A stretch of 64,000 nucleotides of DNA from Allacma fusca (lineage: Eukaryota; Arthropoda; Collembola; Symphypleona; Sminthuridae), in contig OX359247.1 of the NCBI GenBank assembly GCA_947179485.1, positions 54,037,131 through 54,101,130 on the forward strand. The letters are read 5' to 3'. A program made the position numbers and the translations under genes. Shown here one piece after another: positions 330-26,529 of this stretch. The notes under the pieces are model-generated. The model ran no database searches. It saw nothing but the letters and a program-made list of their open reading frames with translations, and was not told the origin of the DNA. Positions within the stretch are counted from its first letter, which is position 1. Every line of letters starts with the position of its first letter.

Positions 330-561
330 TGAAGTCATTGGAGATCGTATAGGGAACGGTAGCTTGTGGCCATCGGAAGTGTGACCCAATTATTCCCGCT
401 GAAGCCTTCCCATCCTCCAGAAGTTCCTTCTCCTTCTCCGAGATCACAATATCTCCTTCGAACAAACCCGCCATCTCTTCTGGGGCCGATCTTCGGACCC
501 TTGTTCGGGCATTTGAAGGGAGCACGAGAATAAGGACAAGCCACAGAGCTAGTATATGCAT
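330..561 (-). CDS. Astacin gene A, first coding exon only (gene runs off the left edge)
   Basis: This exon encodes the signal peptide and propeptide of a secreted astacin-family zinc metalloprotease. The start is the ATG at 561, followed by a hydrophobic leader (MHILALWLVLILVLPSNA). The propeptide carries LFEGDIV, the FxGD motif whose Asp blocks the zinc in known pro-astacins. Then comes AGIIGSHFRWPQATVPYTIS, the usual start of the mature domain. The exon is 232 bases long and ends in phase 1 at a GTACAG donor (329-324), exactly as in the paralogues. Exons 2-5, with the catalytic residues, should lie at lower coordinates outside the window, so activity cannot be judged. Confidence 0.85.
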
Positions 562-2354: not shown

Positions 2355-5300
2355 TCAACCAAATAATGAGAATAGCCAACTGTTTCTCCTGGAAGATTCA
2401 GTCGTGGTCGTTGTCACAGGAATTTCTTCAGGACATTCGTACATTCGATTGATTTTTAGAGCGTCCCATCGGCTCAGGTGTGTCCGTTGGCCAATCTTAA
2501 CTCCATATTTCTGTCAATTTTTCAATGTAATATTTGTGTGAAGTACCAATAGCTTATTAAAACACACATCAACTGCATGTAATAGTTAAATGAAAACAAG
2601 TCTAATGACAACGCACTTTCCACTCTTGTAATTCCATGTGTTGTTATATAAGTAAATGAAAATAGTATTGTGTCAGTGAATTTTCTTTAAACAGAACAAA
2701 ACAATTTGAGCATGTCTACATCTACTAGAATATTAAACTTTTCTTTCCAAAGATTAAGAGTCATTACAAGTGTCAAATTTTGTTTCTTTGAAGGCTCTTA
2801 TCGTAACAAAAACCTTAGAATGAATAATTACCTTTGGCACAATGGACTTGACACCTTTCCGTAACCCTTCCTCATTGACGAAAGCCCTATTGGAGTAATG
2901 CATCACACTGTCAAAGTCATAGGGAACTCCGAAATCAAAGGCTTCCTGCGTTGTGTACTTGACAAAATTGTGGCGATTTTCTGTCAAATCATATTTCCAG
3001 GGGAAAATTAATTTACTGCAATTTACAAGACAGGAATTTTACCTTGAACGAATATTTCGCCATACGCCCCCCCCCCTCCTCATTGCAGTGCCTTGGTTTG
3101 AATTTACAATGCACCCTCACCATTACAAATCAAAACTTTAATTTCTTCCTTACAATTAATAGGGGAGACAAATTCACATTGAGCTTCACGGGATTAGGTA
3201 TTGTCTGTGTACAAAATACTTTCTCTTGTAGAGAGAAGATACTGTAGGGGAATTTGGTAAATTTAATTAATTATAATAATTAAGTAATTAATAGTAACTT
3301 ACCTTCCGGTACATGGTCAAGATTAACAGTGACGTAGTCATCCCTATCCGTTCGAGACTGCTCATGCCAAAACCCGATGGCGTGTACCAGCTCATGAATT
3401 ACGATCCCTTTGGTAACGCATCCCACGGCCCTATTCAAAGTCACTTCCTGTGTCCGAAACAAAAAATTAAAGCTCCAGATTACAGGAGTAGTAAAATTGG
3501 TGATGATCATCACTGATGATGTTTTTTAACTGAGCACACATACATATGTTCATACGTATTATATTTATACAGATGATTAACAGAGTGAAGTTTCAGTCTC
3601 AAAGGGGAAACAATTTTTTAGGAAAATCATTAATTTATTTTAAAAAACGTTGAAAAGTTCTCACCTGTCCTATTTTCTCACCCCGACGACCCACAAAGGA
3701 AGAGCAACCCTGGCCATCTCGGATAAAAATATAGTTTGAATCCCCCTTACGACGTCTGAACCGAATACAAGTTTTTTCGCTTATTTCTGCCATTGCATCT
3801 TTCAGAATTTTCAATTCGTTGCTATCTGTTCAAATATCGCAAGGACAGACTAAATAAACAAATACCTATGTTGCAATTATAAATGATAAACCTTTGCATA
3901 TTTTAATTTAACAAAGTCCATAAACATTAAATTCTTATAATTTTTACTAATTCCATAATTAAGAGTAGTAATTAGATCCCAAACCAAAAGATTTGGTCCA
4001 GGCTGGTTTCTGGTCTGTTCCAGTCAGGCCCGAAAGTTTGTACTATTGAAATAGAGTTTTCTAAATTTATGTCGAAACGATAAATCTGTCAGAAAATGTT
4101 AGGGTCATATGAAGACAGTTCCTGTAGAAGGACCAGAACGGATCATTTGATAGGGCTAAATTATAAATTCGATGCCTACTTGTTTGAAAAGCATGCCCAA
4201 GGGTTTCAAGGGTATAGAAACCCTCCCAATTGTGTACTCTTTAGAAATGTTGGATCAGGGTCGGACCCCGCCGGGAATCGAACCCTGGACCGCTCTGGAT
4301 TTTAACGAAAAGGAAGAATTCAAAATATTTGTTCCAAACAGACCTGGATAACCGAAAAATAAGGTTTCCGTTAGTTCGTTATACGTTATTGTCATTTTTT
4401 TTCCGTTTTCGTTTTTGTTTTCGTTATTTTAAAATACCGTTATCGGTTAAAACGGTTTACAATCAAAATAAATTCGGTTAAACGGTTAATAACGGTATTT
4501 AACAAATTTATTTGTTATATTTGATTAGACTAATAACAAAAGTATTATTCAAACATTTCAAAACCACGGATCCAATACCATTCAAAATCCGTTTGTTCGA
4601 AGGAACAAAACGGCGTTCATTACCTCGTCCTTCATACTGCTTCGTCTTTCAGATAGTACAAATGCTAAGGCTGAAAACAGGCGTTCAACACTGACTTGAG
4701 TCGCAGGAAGGCAAATAATTACTCTAGCTATATATCTCAACGAAGTTGGACCATTACTGGCCCACCATTCGAACAGATCTAACTTTACGCCTTTTTTGTT
4801 TTTTTCACGCGGAATTTTCTCGTATAAGGCTAAACCTTCCAACAATGCTGTTCTGCTGGAAACAGAAGCCGTAAATGCAGATTCTTTGTTCTTGTCTTTA
4901 TTCCTCAGAAATACTTCGAACGGGTCCTCCTCGTCATCAGAAACATTAGCTTTAGGCTGCTCGACAACTTGCTCTTCAATTTCAATAAGCTTTTCTAACC
5001 GTTTGGAAACTGAAAGGATAGCTTCATGGGCCGTTATGGTTTGGTTTTCTGAAGTCAAAATGTTGAAAAACTACGATGACTTTTTGTCTGCCCATTTTTG
5101 TGGTCAAATTTTTTGAAACCCTTGGAACATACGTTGTAAATAAAGTGGAACAAACAATTAGCACTATTAGTAGAAACCTAAATACGCTGAAATAGAAAAC
5201 AATTAGCAAAAGCAGATGTGTTTGTACGAAACTAACAATACACAAGTCGAAATACGCTCAAATTTAACGAATCTAACAATAAGTAATTTATGCTTACTAG

Positions 5301-6044
5301 GTGAGTAATCAACGCACCGATATGTACATACTCCTATAAAATACGTTTACAATTAGCCACGCATTCCAACGGCATACGTTTTCATGGAGTTCAAGGGTTG
5401 GAAGTGGAGTTGGAAGGGAGGGGTACTGGTCGCATTTACAGTTGAGAAAAAACCTAAAATAACCGTATTTTTTCCGTTTCCGTTTCGGTTTCTGTTTTTA
5501 CTAAAACACATTTATCGTTTTTTTTCGTTTATCGTAATTCGTTTTTTTTTCGTTTTCGTTAGGATTTCAAAAACCGTTACTGTCATTTTTCCGGTAATAA
5601 CGTTATGAAATAACGTTATTCCATAACGTTATCCAGGCCTGGTTCCAAACCCCCAAAGTAGAGGCTGTTCGGACCACTAATAAAAACATCGTCTCCATAC
5701 AGGCTAAAATATTTAAACATAACCCAACACTTGGGTCAGGGGTTTTTTCTATGTACTAATTAATAATTATTTAAGTGGTACTCTTTTATAACGAGTGTGT
5801 CTACTGTACCGAAGGCATTGGAAAACAAATAGGGAATGGTAGCGTGTGCCCATCGATAGTGTGACCCAATTATGCCCGCTGAAGCCTCCCCCTCCTCCAG
5901 AAGTTCCTCCTCCTCCTCCTCCGGGATCATAATATCTCCTTCGAAGAATTTCCCGGATTCTTCTGGGGACGGTCTTCGAATCTTTTTCCGGGCATTTGAC
6001 GGAAGAACGAGAAGAAGGACGAGCCACAGAGCTGGTAAATGCAT
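2355..6044 (-). CDS. Astacin gene B, intact secreted metalloprotease (5 coding exons)
   Basis: Exons are 6044-5810, 3825-3665, 3447-3303, 2980-2832 and 2510-2355. The phases join into 281 residues with no stop. It should be a secreted zinc endopeptidase of MEROPS family M12A. Visible parts are the signal peptide (1-18), the FEGD propeptide switch (34-37, Asp37 as predicted zinc blocker), an acidic linker, the mature start near residues 55-59, and the zinc site with His150, Glu151, His154 and His160 ([15 protein letters not shown]). The Met-turn SVMHY is at 205-209 with Tyr209. Cys98, 119, 142 and 256 fit the two astacin disulfides. A short Thr-rich tail ends the protein; no EGF or CUB domains follow. 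Intron 1 is enlarged by a hAT insertion. Confidence 0.9.
3975..4305. repeat. Old hAT-like and tRNA-SINE remnants in intron 1 of B
   Basis: The first part has fragments rich in GGTCCAGACC/TTGGTCC-type sequence, shared at the same place with genes C and E, so the insertion predates the duplications. The end (about 4262-4305) carries GGGTTCGATTCCC on the minus strand, a tRNA T-arm/B-box-like sequence. It is degenerate and non-coding. Confidence 0.5.
4339..5641 (-). mobile_element. hAT transposon, internally deleted, 1303 bases
   Basis: The element has inverted ends (CAGACCTGGATAAC on the left, CAGGCCTGGATAAC as the reverse complement of the right) and a perfect 8-base target duplication, GTTCCAAA, at 4331-4338 and 5642-5649. 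Both are hAT hallmarks. The same target is present once and unfilled in genes C (10,360-10,367) and E (18,516-18,523). A minus-strand frame (about 5058-4582) encodes the hAT C-terminal dimerisation region with PATQVSVERLFSAL and SERRSSMKDEVMNAVLFLRT. The N-terminal BED finger and most of the catalytic core of a normal transposase of about 600 residues are missing, and no ATG opens the frame, so it cannot move by itself. Confidence 0.92.
4582..5058 (-). pseudogene. hAT transposase fragment, C-terminal dimerisation domain
   Basis: About 158 residues remain open. The motif LPATQVSVERLFSAL followed by SSMKDEVMNAVLFLRTN is the conserved C-terminal dimerisation segment of hAT transposases. Upstream domains are absent, so this is a remnant carried by the 4339-5641 element and not a host gene. 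Confidence 0.85.
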
Positions 6045-7912: not shown

Positions 7913-10757
<2,845 letters not shown>

Positions 10758-11952: not shown

Positions 11953-13240
11953 TTACATATGCTCAAAAAAGAATGGCCAACATAGAATACCATGGTCGAT
12001 CGGACCGACATACGCGATTGGTGACTCCGTCGTGCTTGTCTTGGTCTGAATTTGCCCAGAGCATTCGTACATCCGATTGATTTTAAGAGCGTCCATTTCG
12101 CTCAGGTACAACCGGTTGCCAATTTTAACTCCAGGTTTCTGTCAATATTTTAAATGTAAAATTTTTGCGTAACACAAAAAGTTACTAACAGTAGTCAAAT
12201 AACCTACATACGCTCAAGCTATAAGAGCAGGCCTAAACGCAAGGAATTCAACTCTTGTAATTCCATCTTTTGCGTTAAACGTTCAAAAAATAACATTGTT
12301 GCAAATGAGAATCTCTCCAAATTTTTTTATCATTATGGAGAATTTATTTTTATAATAGACTATACAGTTCTTATAATGGCCATGAGTGCACACTTTAGCA
12401 TGTGTATTTTATGACAAATCATACTTTTTACCCTCTGCGGCTTCCAGCGAATGAACGAATTAATTATCTGGGGAGGAAAAATATTTGAACACATCGGTAT
12501 TCATTACGACATTATTAATGTTTTTCCCCGAAAGATCAGTACTCTTTGCAACTGTCAAATTGCACTTCTTGTAAGGGAACTTGCACTATTGTAAAACCTC
12601 TAGATTGACTACCTTTGGCACAACTGACTTGGCACCTCTCCTACGCCCGTCCTCAGAAACGAAAGCCGTATCCTGGTAATGCATCACACTGTCGTAGTCA
12701 TAGGGAACTCCGAAATCAAAGGCTTCCTGCGTTGTGTACTTATCAAAATTGTGGGGTTGTTCTGTAAAAATTAGTTTAGTATCTACTCCAGGGAATACTG
12801 CTATAGTCATGTCCAACAGACTTTTGGTATTCCCTTACTGTCCACAGTCACAGTATCGTTTTTACAGTGTCACCTACAAATATGTATTTAAAATCCACCC
12901 TCGCCATTACAGAATCTCATCTATTCAATTGCTCTTACAATTATTAGAGTAGGAACAACTCACAGGGAGCTCTCCGTACGATTCTCCATACGTAATAATT
13001 TTGTCTGTATAAAAAACAATTCCTCCTACAAAGAGAGGATACTGTGGGGGATTTTGGTGAATTCATGTGTTAATAGTTTACCTTCTGGTGCATATTGAAG
13101 ATTCAGAGTGACGTAGTCATCTGTTATGGTGTCTATCCGTCCGAGACTGCTCATGCTAAAACCCGATGGCTTGTACCATCTCTAGAATTACAGTCCCTTT
13201 GGTAACACATCAGTTCCGTCCGCTCAAATTCACAGTCTAT
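11953..13240 (-). pseudogene. Astacin pseudogene D (exons 3-5 only, zinc site destroyed)
   Basis: Exon 5 (12138-11953) and exon 4 (12761-12613) are still open: KPGVKIGNRLYLSEMDALKI and FGVPYDYDSVMHYQDTAFV. Exon 3 (about 13237-13082) is degenerate. The HELVH region reads LEMVQ, a stop replaces Trp in GFWH, and extra bases interrupt the SRTDRD segment. Exons 1 and 2 are missing: upstream, a fragment of an exon 2 donor is joined to promoter-like sequence near 13,540. A deletion from the 5' leader to the end of exon 2 explains this. It is a dead tandem copy, clearly related to B, C and E. Confidence 0.85.
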
Positions 13241-14409: not shown

Positions 14410-17400
14410 TTAATTTGTGCATCTGTACATTCGATTGATCTTTAGAGCGTCCCTTTGGCTCAGGTGTGTCCGTTGGCCAATCTTAGCTCCATATACCTGT
14501 CAATGTTTCAATATAAAATTCGTGTGAAGTACAAATAATTACAATCATATTCAAACACACATCAACTGTAGTTAAAAAATTAACAAGTCTCAAAGCAAAC
14601 GCATTTTCCACTCTTATAATTCCATGTGCTGTTATTAGCAAATAAAAATAGTATTGTATCATTGAATGTTCTCAACAGGACAAGAACTCGAGCATGTTTA
14701 AATTCACCAGAATATTAATTTTTTCTTGAAAGATCATGCGTCATTACAAGCCTCAAATTTTGTTTCTTTGAGGGGTGCTCTTATTGTAAGAAAATTTTTA
14801 GAATGAATACCTTTGGCACAATGGACATAGCACCTTTCAGTCGGCCTTCCGCATTGATGAAAGCATCACTAGGGTAATGCATCACACTGTCAAAGTCATA
14901 GGGAACTCCGAAATCAAAAGCTTCATGTGCTTTGTACTTATAAAAATTGTATCGATTTCCTGTCAAATAATATTTCATCGGGAAAATTAATTTACATACA
15001 TATTACTATTTACAAGACGGAATTCTTCCTGGAACCGATATTTCCCTCCCCCACTGTACAGTACAGTGCTCGGACTGGGTACAGGTAATACTCGGGTAAA
15101 TGGGTACGGGTACAGGTAGGGGTACTACCCGGGTACAGAAGTTGCGTACTCGCAAGTACGCGGGTTCTACCCGGGTACTCTTGATTTTAGGCAATAAAGT
15201 GGGTACAGGTACGGGTACGGGTATGGGTACTCACTCAGTGGCAATCGGGTAGTACCCAATGGGTACGGGTATCACTATGTAAAATACCTGTACCCGTGGG
15301 TGCTGTACCCGAGTATTTTTGGGTACTTCAAGGGTTCTTGGTGGGATGGATTACTATGGCTAACAATAAGACCTACCAATCGTGGAGTTGCTTATTTCTT
15401 AGTATACAGATACTTGCGTTAGTGACAGAGCCAAGTGGCTTCGTCTCATGATTACGTGGTAGTTGCAATCTAACGCTTCTAATAATTCATCCAAGGAATC
15501 TAATAAATAAATATAGCGTAGAGTCAGTGAAATCATCTGTTTATCGACTTAAATAGTGAAGCTCATCAACGAAGAATTTCAAGAGGGAAGTTCTTGGGAT
15601 TCAATTTAATTAGCTTCATTGGGAGCGTAACATTATAATTATTTGAAGACGTATTACGGGATAAGGTCGGAATAAATATACATTTATTAGCAGATCCATT
15701 TCTTAACGTTACAAGTACCCAGGGTTGCCCATTTGAAAACGCCAAGGCATTTTATGCAGGCAATTTGAGCATTTTCAATTCTGGGTATTTATGACACTGA
15801 GTATTTATTGAGGTGAATATTTATAACATTTTAGAATGAAAAATATCATTCCTTGCACGCAATATTTATATTTCACTCCCTTTGATTAATCTTGATAATT
15901 TTGATGTTAAAGAACTTGACAGACATCTGAACTTGGCGTTCAAAACTTCCATGGGGTTGCATTTTAGTCCTATTTTGCCTGCATTTTTCGAAAATCTCCG
16001 TCTCGGGCTTCATAAATGTGAGAGACAGTTTACGAATGTTTGTTTTATAAAGCTGTAATATAAAATGAATATTCAATATTGCCTCCCACATTTATTTCCT
16101 GAAACCGCAATATTTGACTTGGAAAAATTATGATCAACTCAATTTTTCCGTATAACATTTTCTATACACAGAGTTCGATTAGCCGGAAAAAAATTGTTTC
16201 TTGTTCTCCAAGTTGAAAAGCAAGTTATGGAGAGTTTAGTATTAAAGAATCCGTCCCAATTCCAATTAGCGAGAACACATTTCATTTCATTCAGCAAGTT
16301 ATTATTTTGCGGTAGTAGGATTTGAATTTCGTCAGTGTTTATTAAAAAAATCCCAAAATGCCTTAAATAATTTTTTCAGAAAATTCAAATAGGATGTCTT
16401 TAACGCCTAGGGAAAATTCTCAAAATCCCGGACACTTTTAATGGAGGTCAAAAAATTGACAACTTAAAATTTTTCAGCTGGGCAGGCCAATGTCGTCGGG
16501 GATTTTAAATCGGCCAAACTTCCAGTACCCGAGTAATACCCGGGTACAAACAATAGATACTCGGGTACGGGTACATTTGGGTACATTACGGGTAAATTGT
16601 GGGTACAGGTACTACATTGTATTTTCAGGTACGGGTACGGGTACTGAAATAATTTACCCGGGTACTCGGGTATGGGTACGGGTATAGGTACAGCATTTTG
16701 TAGTACCCGATATTCGGGTACGGGTATGGGTACGGGTACACGGTTTCTGTACCCAGTCCGAGCACTGGTACAGTAGTGCCTTGTTTTGAATTTACAATGC
16801 ATCCTCACCATTACAACTCAAAACTTTCATTTCTTCTTCCTTACAATTATTAGGGAAGGAAATATCCACATTAAACTTCATGGGATTAGATATTGTCTTT
16901 GTACACAAAATACTTTCTCTTGTTGAGAGAAGATACTGTAGGGGATTTTGGTAAATATAAATAATTATGATAATTAAGTAATTAATAGTAACTTACCTTC
17001 TGGTACATAATCAAGATTAACAGCGACGTAGTCATCCCTATCCATTCGAGACTGCTCATGCCAAAACCCGATGGCATGTACCAGCTGATGAATTACGATC
17101 CCTTTGGAAACACATCCGCCCCTACTCAAAGTCACTTCCTGTGTCCGAAACAAAAAGAAATATTAAAGTATCATTTGATAATAGATCATGAATTATTGTA
17201 AATTAATTGTTGCCTTCCCAAAACATGGGTCCAGGTAATTATGTATAGTCATTATTATTCTAGATAGCTGTAAAAGATCTCCGACAAACATTTTCACAAT
17301 GAGGGCAACTATTGGGATATAATCCAAACATACTGTATATGTACATACATTTAATGCTCATTTTTTTAGGGGCGAATTGAAAAGGAAATCCTAATTGTTG

Positions 17401-18897
17401 ATATCTGGTTGTCAGCCAATAACATGCTCACTGACTAACCACAGGAATAACACACAATTCAGCTTTTCTATAAACACAGCAGACTCAAAAAGTTAGGAAC
17501 TTATTTTATTTGGGAGAATATTAGGTTATCTGTTGATCTTGAAGTGATTAGCACTCTGTTTCGGGATTACAGGAGTCAAATTTATTGTGATCACCACTGA
17601 AGATTTTTTAAAATCTAAGCATAATTACATATAGGTATACATATGTACATACATATAATTATATATATTTACAGATGATTAACAGAGTCAAATTTCAGCC
17701 TCAAAGGGGGAACAATTTGTTAGGAAAATAATTAAGTTATAACCAAAACGTTGGAAAATTCTCACCTGTCCCATTTTCTCGCCCCGACGACCCACAAAGG
17801 AAGAGCAACCCTCGCCATCTTGGATAAAAATATAGTTTGCATCCCCCTTAGGACATATGAAGCGAATGCAAGTTTTTCGCATTATTTCCAACATCGCTTC
17901 TCTAATAATTATCCTTTCTGCAAAATCTGTTCAAATATCCCAAGGACAGACTAATAAGTAATTACAAACCTACATATGTTGCAATTATGTGCGGTGTACC
18001 TTTAGTATATTTTAATTTAGAAAATTCCATGAAAATTAAATTTTTCTTATTTTCACTACTTCCATAATAATTATTACGGGTAGTGCTGGAACAGTTCCGG
18101 CCCAGACCAAAAGATTTGGTCCAGGCTGGTTTTTAATGCGTTCTGATCCGGTCCAAAAGTTTGGACTATTAAAATGGCATATTCCAAATTTATGTCGGAC
18201 CGGTAAATCTGTCAGAAAATTTTGGACCAGGTCATACGAAGACAGTTCCTGTAAAAGGACTAGGACGGATCATTTGATCGGACCAAAATTATAAGGTCTA
18301 TACTATTCCATTGAAAAGCGTACCCCAAGGGTTTCAAGGGAATAAAAACCTTCCCAATTAAATACTCTTTAGAAATGTTGAAATAGTTTTGGACCTAACC
18401 GGGATTCGAACCCTGGATTTAGACTGGAGATTAGTGTTAATGCCTATTTGTAAGTTGCTCGGACCTATTCAGAGAACGCTCTGGATTTTAAGGAAAAGGA
18501 AAAATCAAAATGTTTGTTCCAAACCCAGAACAGGCTGTTCGGAATCCATGATAAAAACATAACCCAACACTTGGGTCAATGTTATTTTCAATTAATTTTT
18601 ATTTATATCAAGTAATTAATATTTAAGAGGTATCTACTCCTTTATAACGAGTGTGTCTACTGTACCGAAGTGATTGGAGATCACATAGGGAATGCTAGCG
18701 TGTGCCCACCGGTAGTGTGACCCAATTATGCCCGATGAAGCCTTCCCTTCCTCCATAAATTCCGCCTCCTCCTTCGGGAGCACAATATCTCCTTCGAACA
18801 AACCCGCCCTCTCTTCTGGGGATGATCTTCGGATCCTTATTCGGGCATTTGACGAAAGAATGAGAAGAAGGACGAGCCACAGAGCTGGTAAATGCAT
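14410..18897 (-). CDS. Astacin gene E, open frame but catalytic Glu replaced by Gln
   Basis: Exons are 18897-18666, 17926-17766, 17138-16997, 14959-14811 and 14496-14410. They join in frame to 256 residues with all splice sites kept. The signal peptide, the FEGDIVLP propeptide switch, CIRF, GCSS and SVMHYP Met-turn are all present. The zinc motif reads [11 protein letters not shown], so the three His (148, 152, 158) remain while the catalytic Glu is Gln149 (CAG at 17087-17085; GAG in B, C, F, G and H). In zinc metallopeptidases this exchange normally abolishes peptide cleavage but leaves the fold and zinc binding. Other oddities are an added Cys (FICPKGD), SRMDRD for SRTDRD, and a tail cut to YRCTN. 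It could be a pseudoenzyme or a recently decaying copy. Intron 3 carries a 1.7 kb transposon. Confidence 0.87.
15064..16767. mobile_element. hAT-like non-autonomous element with GGGTAC-rich ends
   Basis: The ends are a perfect 21-base inverted repeat beginning CAGTGCTCGGACTGGGTACA, flanked by the perfect 8-base target duplication GTACAGTA (15,056-15,063 and 16,768-16,775). Inside each end lies about 250 bases dominated by GGGTACGGGTA-type motifs (15,078-15,345 and, inverted, 16,525-16,755). The middle (about 15,350-16,480) is AT-rich and no frame resembles a transposase. Genes B and C lack the insert at the same intron position. The 8-base duplication and the CAG start point to hAT mobilisation. 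The size, 1704 bases, is large for a MITE. Confidence 0.9.
18075..18480. repeat. Old hAT-like and tRNA-SINE remnants in intron 1 of E
   Basis: Same position and order as in B and C. It starts TAGTGCTGGAACAGTTCCGG at about 18,082. The SINE-like part gives GGGTTCGAATCCCGG on the minus strand (about 18,400-18,414), the clearest B-box match of the three. The shared site dates both insertions before the B/C/E duplications. Confidence 0.55.
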
Positions 18898-20977: not shown

Positions 20978-23244
20978 CTAGCCAATAACAACAGAATTTG
21001 ATTTTGTACTTGAATTTAATATCCCATTTGAATCCGCACTATCCTTTAATACCTCTTGGAAAGAATCCAATGCCTGAACCTCCTGTGAATTTTCTCGGTC
21101 TCTTTGCAAATAGTAGTCATCCACATAACTATTCTTGGATTTTTCTAACTGCTTCCGTTTCCATGCTGACATGCTTGGGCTCCTCCAGGATTGAATTTTC
21201 TGTCCGCTAATTAATATTTTCGGGATTGTTGGAGCCGTAGTAGTAGCTTCTGTGGAGGTTTGCCAAGACTTTGTTGTTGAAGGTTCAGGGGTGGTCGTCA
21301 TTAATTTCCATATTGGATAGTAATATCGTCGGGTAGTTGTTTCAGGGCGGTAATAATAATTATAAGAGAACGGATGTATTTGATTCTGTCGAAATAATTC
21401 TCTTTCATCAGGCCTGACTGTTGTCGTTGTTGTTGAGGACGGTACAATAATAGTCTCACTATTCCTCGGACAATTGTACATCCGGTTGATTTTCTTGGCG
21501 TCCAATTTGCTCAAATATTTCCGTTGGCCAATATGAGCTCCTGGGTCCTGCGGAAGTTTATTGAAAAATTCTGGGATTAATATAGGAGGTCAAATGTTTG
21601 GAGTGTTTTATAACTTCCAATAATTATGACTCCTGTCAATGCAGTGACCTCTCGCTGTAAACACCCTTGCAAACATTTTTTCTTCAGAGTAAAAATCCTG
21701 GGAAACATTCACCCTGACCGAATGTTAATTTAAAAGGTTTGCTGGAGTAAACGATTTAATTAAATTTGACTGTGGTTATAGCGGACATTGTTACAGGGAG
21801 CATGTTTACTGCATATATTATTTTCCCCCTAACTTTAAAAAAAAAATATTAGACGAAGGCTACCCTTGGAACAATAGTTTTCTCGCCCTTTCGGAGTGCG
21901 TCTGTGGAGATGAAAGCCCTGTCATGGTAATGCATGACACTGTCGTAGTCATACGGAACTCCAAAATCATTCACATCCTGCGTCGTGTACTTGTTGAAAT
22001 TTTGACGTTTTTCTGGAAAAATCACAGTATTTTATTTGAGGTAGCTTTCTGAACCTGTGCTCATGGTTCTATGTATGTTAGTACGTATTTCCTACATGCT
22101 ACTTTTATTGAACGTTACCTTGATGTATATTATAAAATTTAATAGTGACGTAATTATCCCTATCAGTTCGGGACTGCTCATGCCAAAACCCAATGACGTG
22201 AACCAGCTCATGAATAGCAGTCCCTTTGGATATACAACTCTTGCCCAATGTCACGACCTGTAATTACTCAAGAGTAAAAAAAATAATGTGAGGACCTTTC
22301 TACGTTCCACTGTCACCTCAGCAATCATTGTATGTATTGCATATGGGCATGCATGTTTTCTATTTAAATAATTATTGTACTTTAAATGAATCATTCCCAA
22401 ATGTGACGAACACGTGGAACAAAGTGTAAAAAAAAAAATTTGAAACAATTTCTGAACTCGAGAATTCTCACTTGACCGTGACGCCCGGAACGACCCACTT
22501 CAGAAGAGCAGCCATCCCCATCTCGAATAATTATGTAACTCCTTTCCCGTTCATGAGGCTTGAACCGAATGCAAGTTTTTGCACTTATTTCCGCCATTGC
22601 ATCATATAGCATTTGATATTCCGAGCTGTCTGCTCAAAAATCCCAAAAGTATACAGAGAGAATTTGTATTAGAATTATTGCATTTTGACAAAATAATAAT
22701 GATAGAAATTTGTAATTATTTGAAGCCTGAAATCTACAGTGTACTCGGATTGTAGGGGAGATAACCTTATGAGCTAATTTGAAGGGATCCCCATTTACCA
22801 CAATGTTAATTTCCAAAGGATTATTAGTTATTATGAATTTGATAGTGTGACGCTATATGGCGTAAGCACTGCTACCAAAAAACCCATATGTATACCTTTT
22901 ATGAAGGTATATTTCAAAATGGCGTTTCATAAAATGATTTGGAAAAAAATGTGCCCGGAATCTGGAATTTTTGTTCTAAAAGAGGATTTTGTGTGTAAGT
23001 TTTGAGCTGTACCGAAGTCATTGGAGATCTGAAAGGGAACGGTAGCATGTTTCCACCGGTGATGTAACCCAATTATCCCCGCGGATGCTTTCCCTGACTC
23101 CAGAAGTTCCTCTTCCTCCTTCGGGATCACAATATCTCCTTCGAACAAATCCGGAGACTCTTCTGGGACCTGTCCTCGATCCCTTTCTTGGGAATTTGAA
23201 GGGAGCACGAGGACCAGGCCGAGGAACAGAGACGGTAAATACAT
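20978..23244 (-). CDS. Astacin gene F, intact, with long Thr-rich C-terminal tail
   Basis: Exons are 23244-23013, 22629-22472, 22257-22119, 22012-21864 and 21547-20978, giving 415 residues in frame. It is predicted to be a secreted zinc endopeptidase (M12A). Visible are a leader (MYLPSLFLGLVLVLPSNS), LFEGDIVIP propeptide switch, zinc site [19 protein letters not shown] (His146, Glu147, His150, His156), Met-turn SVMHYH and the closing MYNCP. Exon 5 is much longer than in B or E. It adds about 160 residues rich in Thr, Ser, Pro, Tyr and Arg (YNYYYRPETTTRRYYY), a likely O-glycosylated stalk, and a basic SAWKRKQLEKSK motif. Gene G is its closest relative. The tail matches no domain I know. Confidence 0.9.
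22797..22813. repeat. Short dispersed repeat with CCACAATGTTAATTT
   Basis: The 15-base word CCACAATGTTAATTT in intron 1 of gene F recurs near 34,210 and 63,118, each time in AT-rich non-coding DNA. Probably a remnant of a dispersed repeat. Confidence 0.4.

Positions 23245-24122: not shown

Positions 24123-26529
<2,407 letters not shown>

What the first reader, a model, noticed from the sequence alone, without database searches (positions are those of the whole stretch)
16997..17138. Tandem astacin with HQLVH: a full-length, in-frame protease whose catalytic Glu is Gln
Gene E keeps five exons, every splice site, the signal peptide, the propeptide Asp switch, the three zinc His and the Met-turn. 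The only change in the core motif is Glu to Gln at residue 149 (codon 17087-17085). In metzincins this leaves zinc and substrate binding possible but removes the general base. An otherwise open frame suggests either a selected pseudoenzyme (a decoy, inhibitor trap or substrate-binding lectin-like role) or a very recent loss. The shortened tail and extra Cys add to the oddity.
Basis: partly seen in the sequence, partly recalled or inferred. Interest (0 to 1): 0.8.

Follow-up and report, generated by a model that had tools for sequence, protein, structure and literature searches.

The report
Springtail astacin copy lacking catalytic glutamate
In a cluster of duplicated protease genes of a springtail, one copy is complete except that the amino acid that does the chemistry has been swapped for its inert twin; this is either the first step of that copy's decay or the birth of a protease-shaped protein that no longer cuts.

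Summary
Gene E (18897-14410, minus strand, probably chromosome 3 of Allacma fusca) has five exons, GT-AG introns and an open 256-aa frame with [12 protein letters not shown]. Codon 149 is CAG; the seven compared copies have GAG. Of 73 astacin zinc motifs read in this genome, only E lacks that Glu.

But the average hides two regimes: of 79 positions invariant in seven relatives E changed one, the catalytic Glu, where neutrality predicts about 13. So E was a core-constrained, fast-changing astacin for most of its history.

Most counts around exon 3 suggest that Q149 is younger than E itself (0.15 to 0.5 of the branch), but two counts allow 0.8. Fresh decay and a kept pseudoprotease cannot be separated. 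Copy A, split by a transposon, also has a conserved core, so that does not prove present function.

The parts
18666..18897 (-). Gene E exon 1: start, hydrophobic leader (by eye), propeptide with FEGD, start of the mature part
17766..17926 (-). Gene E exon 2, with the extra Cys102
16997..17138 (-). Gene E exon 3: [19 protein letters not shown], first to third zinc His and family Glu
17085..17087 (-). Codon 149, CAG (Gln); GAG (Glu) in the 7 compared copies
14811..14959 (-). Gene E exon 4: SVMHY Met-turn and Tyr zinc ligand
14410..14496 (-). Gene E exon 5: ends MYRCTN and stop, without the longer tail of its neighbours
17139..17560 (-). Part of E intron 2 with low E-specific divergence (6 of 341 sites), read as recent gene conversion. 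Copy A resembles E and C from about 17296 on, into exon 3
15064..16767 (.). hAT-like element in E intron 3: inverted ends CAGTGCTCGGACTGGGTACAG, 8-bp duplication GTACAGTA
   Evidence: the class is inferred from ends and target-site length
2355..6044 (-). Copy B, intact, HELVH, 281 aa: nearest intact relative of E
7913..10757 (-). Copy C: HELVH, but a 4-nt insertion in exon 3 shifts the frame (lower end from the tail reading)
12037..13218 (-). Copy D: exons 3-5 remnant, LEMVQ, stop in the zinc motif; no exon 1 or 2 match (12037 is the end of the match)
331..561 (-). Copy A exon 1; the rest lies in flank L009; its exon 3 is split by a transposon-like insert
20978..23244 (-). Copy F, intact, HELVH, 415 aa
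24123..26529 (-). Copy G, intact, HELVH, 425 aa
27154..30111 (-). Copy H, intact, HELVH, 318 aa

Best explanation
E is a tandem astacin gene (family M12A) of the springtail Allacma fusca that lost its general base by one G-to-C change (GAG to CAG, E149Q), probably late on its branch. For most of that branch it evolved as a constrained protein: the fold and active-site core were kept while other residues changed fast, and parts of intron 2 and exon 3 were exchanged with neighbours by gene conversion. The protein read from the gene should still be secreted, be held latent by the propeptide Asp, bind zinc through three His and the Tyr, and bind substrate, but it should hardly hydrolyse peptides (inferred from established metzincin chemistry, not shown). 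I think the change most likely marks the first step of this copy's death in an array where copies are born and lost often. Shown: sequence, gene model, constraint pattern. Suggested: late origin of Q149. Inferred: loss of activity, lack of a present role.
For: The Gln is derived: GAG in 7 of 7 compared copies. Most local counts of E-specific sites are low: 6 of 341 in the middle and 3' parts of intron 2, 5 of 141 in exon 3, third codon positions 1 of 47 in exon 3 against 27 of 207 in the other exons (Fisher p=0.036); the branch mean is 154 of 1789 noncoding sites. Copy A, very different from E and C over the middle of intron 2 (96 A-specific sites of 183), has only 7 of 158 in the part before exon 3, as conversion would leave. 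Broken copies are common here: 3 of 8 (A, C, D). E's amino-acid rate is raised over background in each of four trees over all codons (2dlnL 7.8 to 14.8).
Against: The gene is otherwise undamaged: the only change among 79 invariant positions is the catalytic one. Decay that began at 0.2 to 0.4 of the branch would add about 5 to 9 disabling events; none is seen. The dating is loose: the 5' part of exon 3 counted against C and A gives 6 of 86 E-specific sites and intron 3 just behind exon 3 gives 15 of 216, both about 0.8 of the branch mean, and exon 3 is the most conserved exon anyway. A kept protein fits the intactness better. Raised change outside the core (w 2.24 against 1, 2dlnL 6.3) is more than relaxation alone predicts.
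Confidence: 0.47

Rival explanations
1. Selected pseudoprotease: E is kept as a secreted, zinc-holding, substrate-binding protein without cutting, for example to compete with active array members for substrate or for an inhibitor, or to pair with them.
For: Open frame, splice sites, leader (by eye), latency Asp and zinc ligands kept; 78 of 79 invariant positions kept; non-core positions change faster than neutral in the partition test (w 2.24, 2dlnL 6.3). An undamaged copy is expected in only about 5 to 28% of cases if decay began at a random time in the last 0.15 to 0.8 of the branch.
Against: If Q149 is late, most of the constraint and fast change predate it. Copy A, now split by a transposon, shows the same conserved core (3 of 54 changes in it). 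E-specific change in exons 1-2 exceeds that of nearby noncoding DNA (53/393 against 82/1192, p=0.0001), but B shows the reverse (7/393 against 144/1192, p=8.5e-12), so exons and introns have different conversion histories and this contrast is confounded; in exons 3-5 it is absent (34/369 against 72/597, p=0.2). No expression or binding data.
Confidence: 0.31
2. Still a weak protease: Gln in place of Glu leaves a small residual activity and E is used as a slow enzyme.
For: Zinc ligands, Met-turn and family Glu159 are intact. Glu-to-Gln changes in related metalloproteases can leave a trace of activity (recalled, no call).
Against: The review read in passages calls this Glu the general base/acid required for catalysis (PMC9848320), and no other of the 73 motifs read lacks it.
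Confidence: 0.1
3. Segregating allele or sequence error: the reference individual carries Gln but the population mostly Glu, or the base is wrong.
For: The assembly is from one individual; the change is a single base.
Against: The assembly has QV 58.7 (PMC10427803, passage), so a single-base error is very unlikely. Polymorphism cannot be excluded here.
Confidence: 0.1
4. Long-dead pseudogene whose open frame is luck.
For: Branch-wide dN/dS near 1; coding divergence E-C (126/767) no lower than noncoding (341/2473); an odd extra Cys and a lost tail.
Against: Neutral simulation with 66 changes: about 13 invariant positions hit (minimum 3 in 4000 runs) against 1 seen, 2.4 stops against 0 (P of none 0.09), and about 7.8 frame-breaking indels at the noncoding rate against 0 seen in the compared stretch.
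Confidence: 0.02

Closest known systems
Crayfish astacin and meprin beta (M12A; PDB 1ast, 6ht9, 4gwm)
   Same: Catalytic domain over its length; two-disulfide Cys framework, family Glu and Met-turn as described in PMC9848320 (passages)
   Different: They have Glu where E has Gln; E has a fifth Cys in this stretch
ADAM7, a mammalian metzincin pseudopeptidase with HQLGH (PMC11266112, passages)
   Same: Same Glu-to-Gln change with the zinc His kept
   Different: ADAM7 is a multi-domain ADAM, an integral membrane protein on sperm, and its integrin recognition needed only the disintegrin domain; E is a single-domain astacin, secreted by inference
Tandem astacin copies B, F, G, H of the same array
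   Same: Exon structure, leader, propeptide, zinc ligands
   Different: They keep Glu and have longer tails

Membership tests
Astacin family (M12A), as a fold | Pfam Astacin profile over full length | tested here: met
   190.9 bits, profile 1-189 of 189
Astacin family (M12A), as a fold | Three zinc His, family Glu with XXRXDRD, Met-turn with Tyr, propeptide Asp | tested here: met
   H148, H152, H158, E159, QSRMDRD, SVMHY, FEGD in the protein printed (definition from PMC9848320 passages)
Active astacin peptidase | Catalytic Glu after the first zinc His | tested here: not met
   Gln149, codon CAG
Pseudoenzyme (pseudopeptidase) | Catalytic residue lost with fold kept | tested here: met
   By sequence only: 1 of 79 invariant positions changed, the Glu; no structure was predicted
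Pseudoenzyme (pseudopeptidase) | Maintained by selection after the loss | tested here: inconclusive
   Constraint shown for the branch, but the date of the loss is loose and possibly late; broken copy A shows similar core constraint
Pseudoenzyme (pseudopeptidase) | No catalytic activity, expressed protein | not testable with these tools
   No protein or RNA data
Pseudogene | Frame breaks or splice loss | tested here: not met
   Open frame, GT-AG at four introns

The most novel reading that the evidence does not exclude
E is a newly born, selected astacin pseudoprotease: its other residues are under diversifying selection while the fold is frozen, and losing the general base turned it from a cutter into a competitor for substrates or inhibitors of its sister proteases.
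Probability: 0.26. Interest if true: 0.6.

Novelty: new member of a known kind. Interest (0 to 1): 0.36.

Why it matters
If kept, E would show a metzincin pseudoprotease near its birth, next to its active sisters, with a single-base cause. No natural Glu-to-Gln astacin showed up in the listings of the literature searches made here. If it is decaying, it is an ordinary first hit in a turnover-prone array, and it shows that a branch-wide dN/dS near one can hide strong core constraint.

Tried and rejected
Neutral pseudogene since duplication: rejected by simulation and by the partition test at invariant positions (2dlnL 11.7). Gln copies elsewhere in the genome: none among 73 motifs read (66 in fetched loci L001-L066, 7 in the window). 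Locus L067 gave no motif and was dropped, and the search behind these loci is capped with a cut list. A search with E exon 3 gave 72 matches from 75 candidates; the next ranks after E are B, G, C and O, all with Glu.

Whether the divergent exons 2 and 4 of E came from another paralog by conversion: the exon 4 search gave 12 matches, the eight array copies first. The exon 2 search did not complete, so this is open for exon 2.

Tree uncertainty: noncoding DNA groups C with E in the 5' half and B with C in the 3' half, so four trees were fitted. Over all codons wE ranged from 1.00 to 1.69 and exceeded background in each (p 0.0001 to 0.005); the best-fitting tree joins B and C. For exons 3-5 alone the best tree joins B and E and gives wE 0.91; for the 5' half two trees gave only p about 0.09. 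The positive-selection reading at variable positions (2dlnL 6.3) rests on one tree and on a partition chosen here, so I hold it loosely. The excess of E-specific change in exons 1-2 over introns I first took as support; B shows the opposite contrast, so I now count it as confounded by conversion.

Going over again, two counts (6 of 86, 15 of 216) allow about 0.8, so the date is now given as 0.15 to 0.8, and the odds moved slightly from young loss (0.50 to 0.47) to selected pseudoprotease (0.28 to 0.31; novel reading 0.25 to 0.26).

The bacterial promoter scan says nothing about an animal promoter.

Literature: in the listings no title or abstract start pointed to an astacin with Gln for Glu or to inactive astacins in arthropods. 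The full texts were not read; passages only were seen of PMC10427803, PMC11266112 (12 of 56 places), PMC4826915 and PMC9848320. The library holds open-licence PMC papers only. PMC9848320 kept only sequences with an intact zinc motif (passage), so it would have left out such genes.

Full report
Source. The window is G000:C10:54037131-54101130. Contig lengths of G000 (C8 75.61, C10 66.08, C12 58.81, C1 81.89, C9 48.06 Mb) and its 392.7 Mb fit the chromosome table of the Allacma fusca genome note closely (75.61, 66.08, 58.81, 81.9 and 48.07 Mb, 392.8 Mb in all; PMC10427803, search listing and passages). The window would lie on chromosome 3, an autosome; the assembly is from one male, QV 58.7.

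The array. Eight astacin copies lie head to tail on the minus strand, one of them mostly upstream in L009. A: exon 3 is split by a transposon-like insert. B: intact, 281 aa. C: 4-nt frame-shifting insertion in exon 3. D: exons 3-5 only, with a stop in the motif. E: the finding. F, G, H: intact.

The observation. E has five exons and four GT-AG introns. The deduced protein has 256 aa with a hydrophobic leader (by eye), [23 protein letters not shown] and SVMHY. Codon 149 is CAG at 17087-17085 and GAG in A, B, C, F, G, H and O. Pfam Astacin matches fully, and 17 distinct PDB sequences match at E up to 0.001, among them crayfish astacin, meprins, BMP-1/tolloid and a hatching enzyme. The fifth Cys and the short tail are real. 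The stop falls two residues after the last framework Cys, so the catalytic domain is complete; 36 nt present in B and C are missing just behind the stop.

How unusual. I fetched the motif-bearing stretches listed by the genome-wide Pfam search (capped, list cut). In 73 motifs (66 in loci L001-L066, 7 in the window) only E lacks the catalytic Glu. Locus L067 gave no motif and was left out. Other motif defects exist: first His lost in D, L047 and L063, third His lost in L061.

Selection. Pairwise NG86 ratios are E-B 0.74, E-C 0.62, B-C 0.49, F-G 0.29 over the leader, propeptide and catalytic domain. Four trees were tried, because conversion blurs the history, and gave 1.00 to 1.69.

Two regimes. 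At 79 columns invariant in A, B, C, F, G, H and O, E changed one, E149Q; 47 of its 48 changes against B=C lie elsewhere (hypergeometric 5e-8). Leaving exon 3 out, 0 of 58 invariant columns changed against 44 changes elsewhere. The partition model gives E w 0.07 in the core (neutral rejected, 2dlnL 11.7) and 2.24 outside it (against 1, 2dlnL 6.3). Neutral simulation at the noncoding rate gives about 13 invariant positions hit (minimum 3 in 4000 runs), 2.4 stops and 7.8 frame-breaking indels, against 1, 0 and 0 observed. E has therefore not been drifting for most of its branch.

A contrast that I do not rely on. In exons 1-2, E-specific change (53/393) exceeds that of nearby noncoding DNA (82/1192; p=0.0001). 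But B shows the reverse (7/393 against 144/1192; p=8.5e-12), so exons and introns of this half have different conversion histories; in exons 3-5 there is no excess (34/369 against 72/597).

A control that limits the reading. Copy A, plainly broken now, has only 3 of its 54 changes in invariant columns. A conserved core shows past constraint, not present function.

Age of the change. Around exon 3 most counts of E-specific sites are low: 6 of 341 in the middle and 3' parts of intron 2, 5 of 141 in exon 3 against B and C, 2 of 87 in its 5' part against B and A, third positions 1 of 47 against 27 of 207 in the other exons (p=0.036). The branch mean is 154 of 1789 noncoding sites. Copy A turns from very different (96 A-specific of 183) to nearly identical (7 of 158) within intron 2, the mark of gene conversion. 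Since A, B and C carry Glu, Q149 is younger than any such exchange that covered its codon. Against this, the 5' part of exon 3 counted against C and A gives 6 of 86, and intron 3 just behind gives 15 of 216, both about 0.8 of the mean, and exon 3 is under the strongest constraint. So the change is somewhere in the last 0.15 to 0.8 of the branch, more likely late.

Weighing. If decay began at a random time in that span, an undamaged copy would be seen in 28% of cases (span 0.15), 21% (0.2), 11% (0.4) or 5% (0.8). That favours a kept protein by about 4 to 19 fold in likelihood, against a prior in which loss of tandem copies is common (3 of 8 here). I end at 0.47 for loss without a new role, 0.31 for a selected pseudoprotease, and the rest for weak activity, allele or error.

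Mechanism. In astacins this Glu is the general base/acid (PMC9848320, passages). With Gln, zinc and substrate binding should persist and hydrolysis nearly vanish; this is inference from the family. The closest known parallel is ADAM7 with HQLGH, tabled among the inactive ADAMs in a review of pseudopeptidases (PMC11266112, passages). That review uses the word astacin once, in naming the metzincin families; 12 of 56 matching places were seen.

Noticed in passing
window 15064-16767: hAT-like element inserted in intron 3 of E, perfect 21-bp inverted ends and 8-bp target duplication GTACAGTA.
   Followed up: partly
L009, copy A exon 3: A second insert, rich in GGGTAC-like repeats at its ends, splits the zinc-motif exon of copy A; host bases ATGAGCAG are repeated on both sides.
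   Followed up: partly
window 4582-5070, minus strand: Open frame of 162 aa within intron 1 of copy B that looks like the C-terminal dimerisation part of a hAT transposase (recalled, not tested).
   Followed up: no
L061 (G000:C1:67270801-67271312): Astacin with Arg in place of the third zinc His (HETLHALGFYREH) in a 243-aa open frame: another candidate pseudoprotease.
   Followed up: no
L047 and L063: Astacin motifs with Gln in place of the first zinc His (QETLH); the match behind L047 holds one stop.
   Followed up: no
L037, L038, L039, L044, L064 (C1:61.25-61.38 Mb): Five copies with the same motif stretch and Thr in place of the family-specific Glu after the third His (FYHTQSRSDRD).
   Followed up: no
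window 20978-21547 and 24123-24695: Copies F and G carry long Thr-rich tails (163 and 164 residues after the last framework Cys), possibly mucin-like; B has 25 residues there and E two.
   Followed up: no
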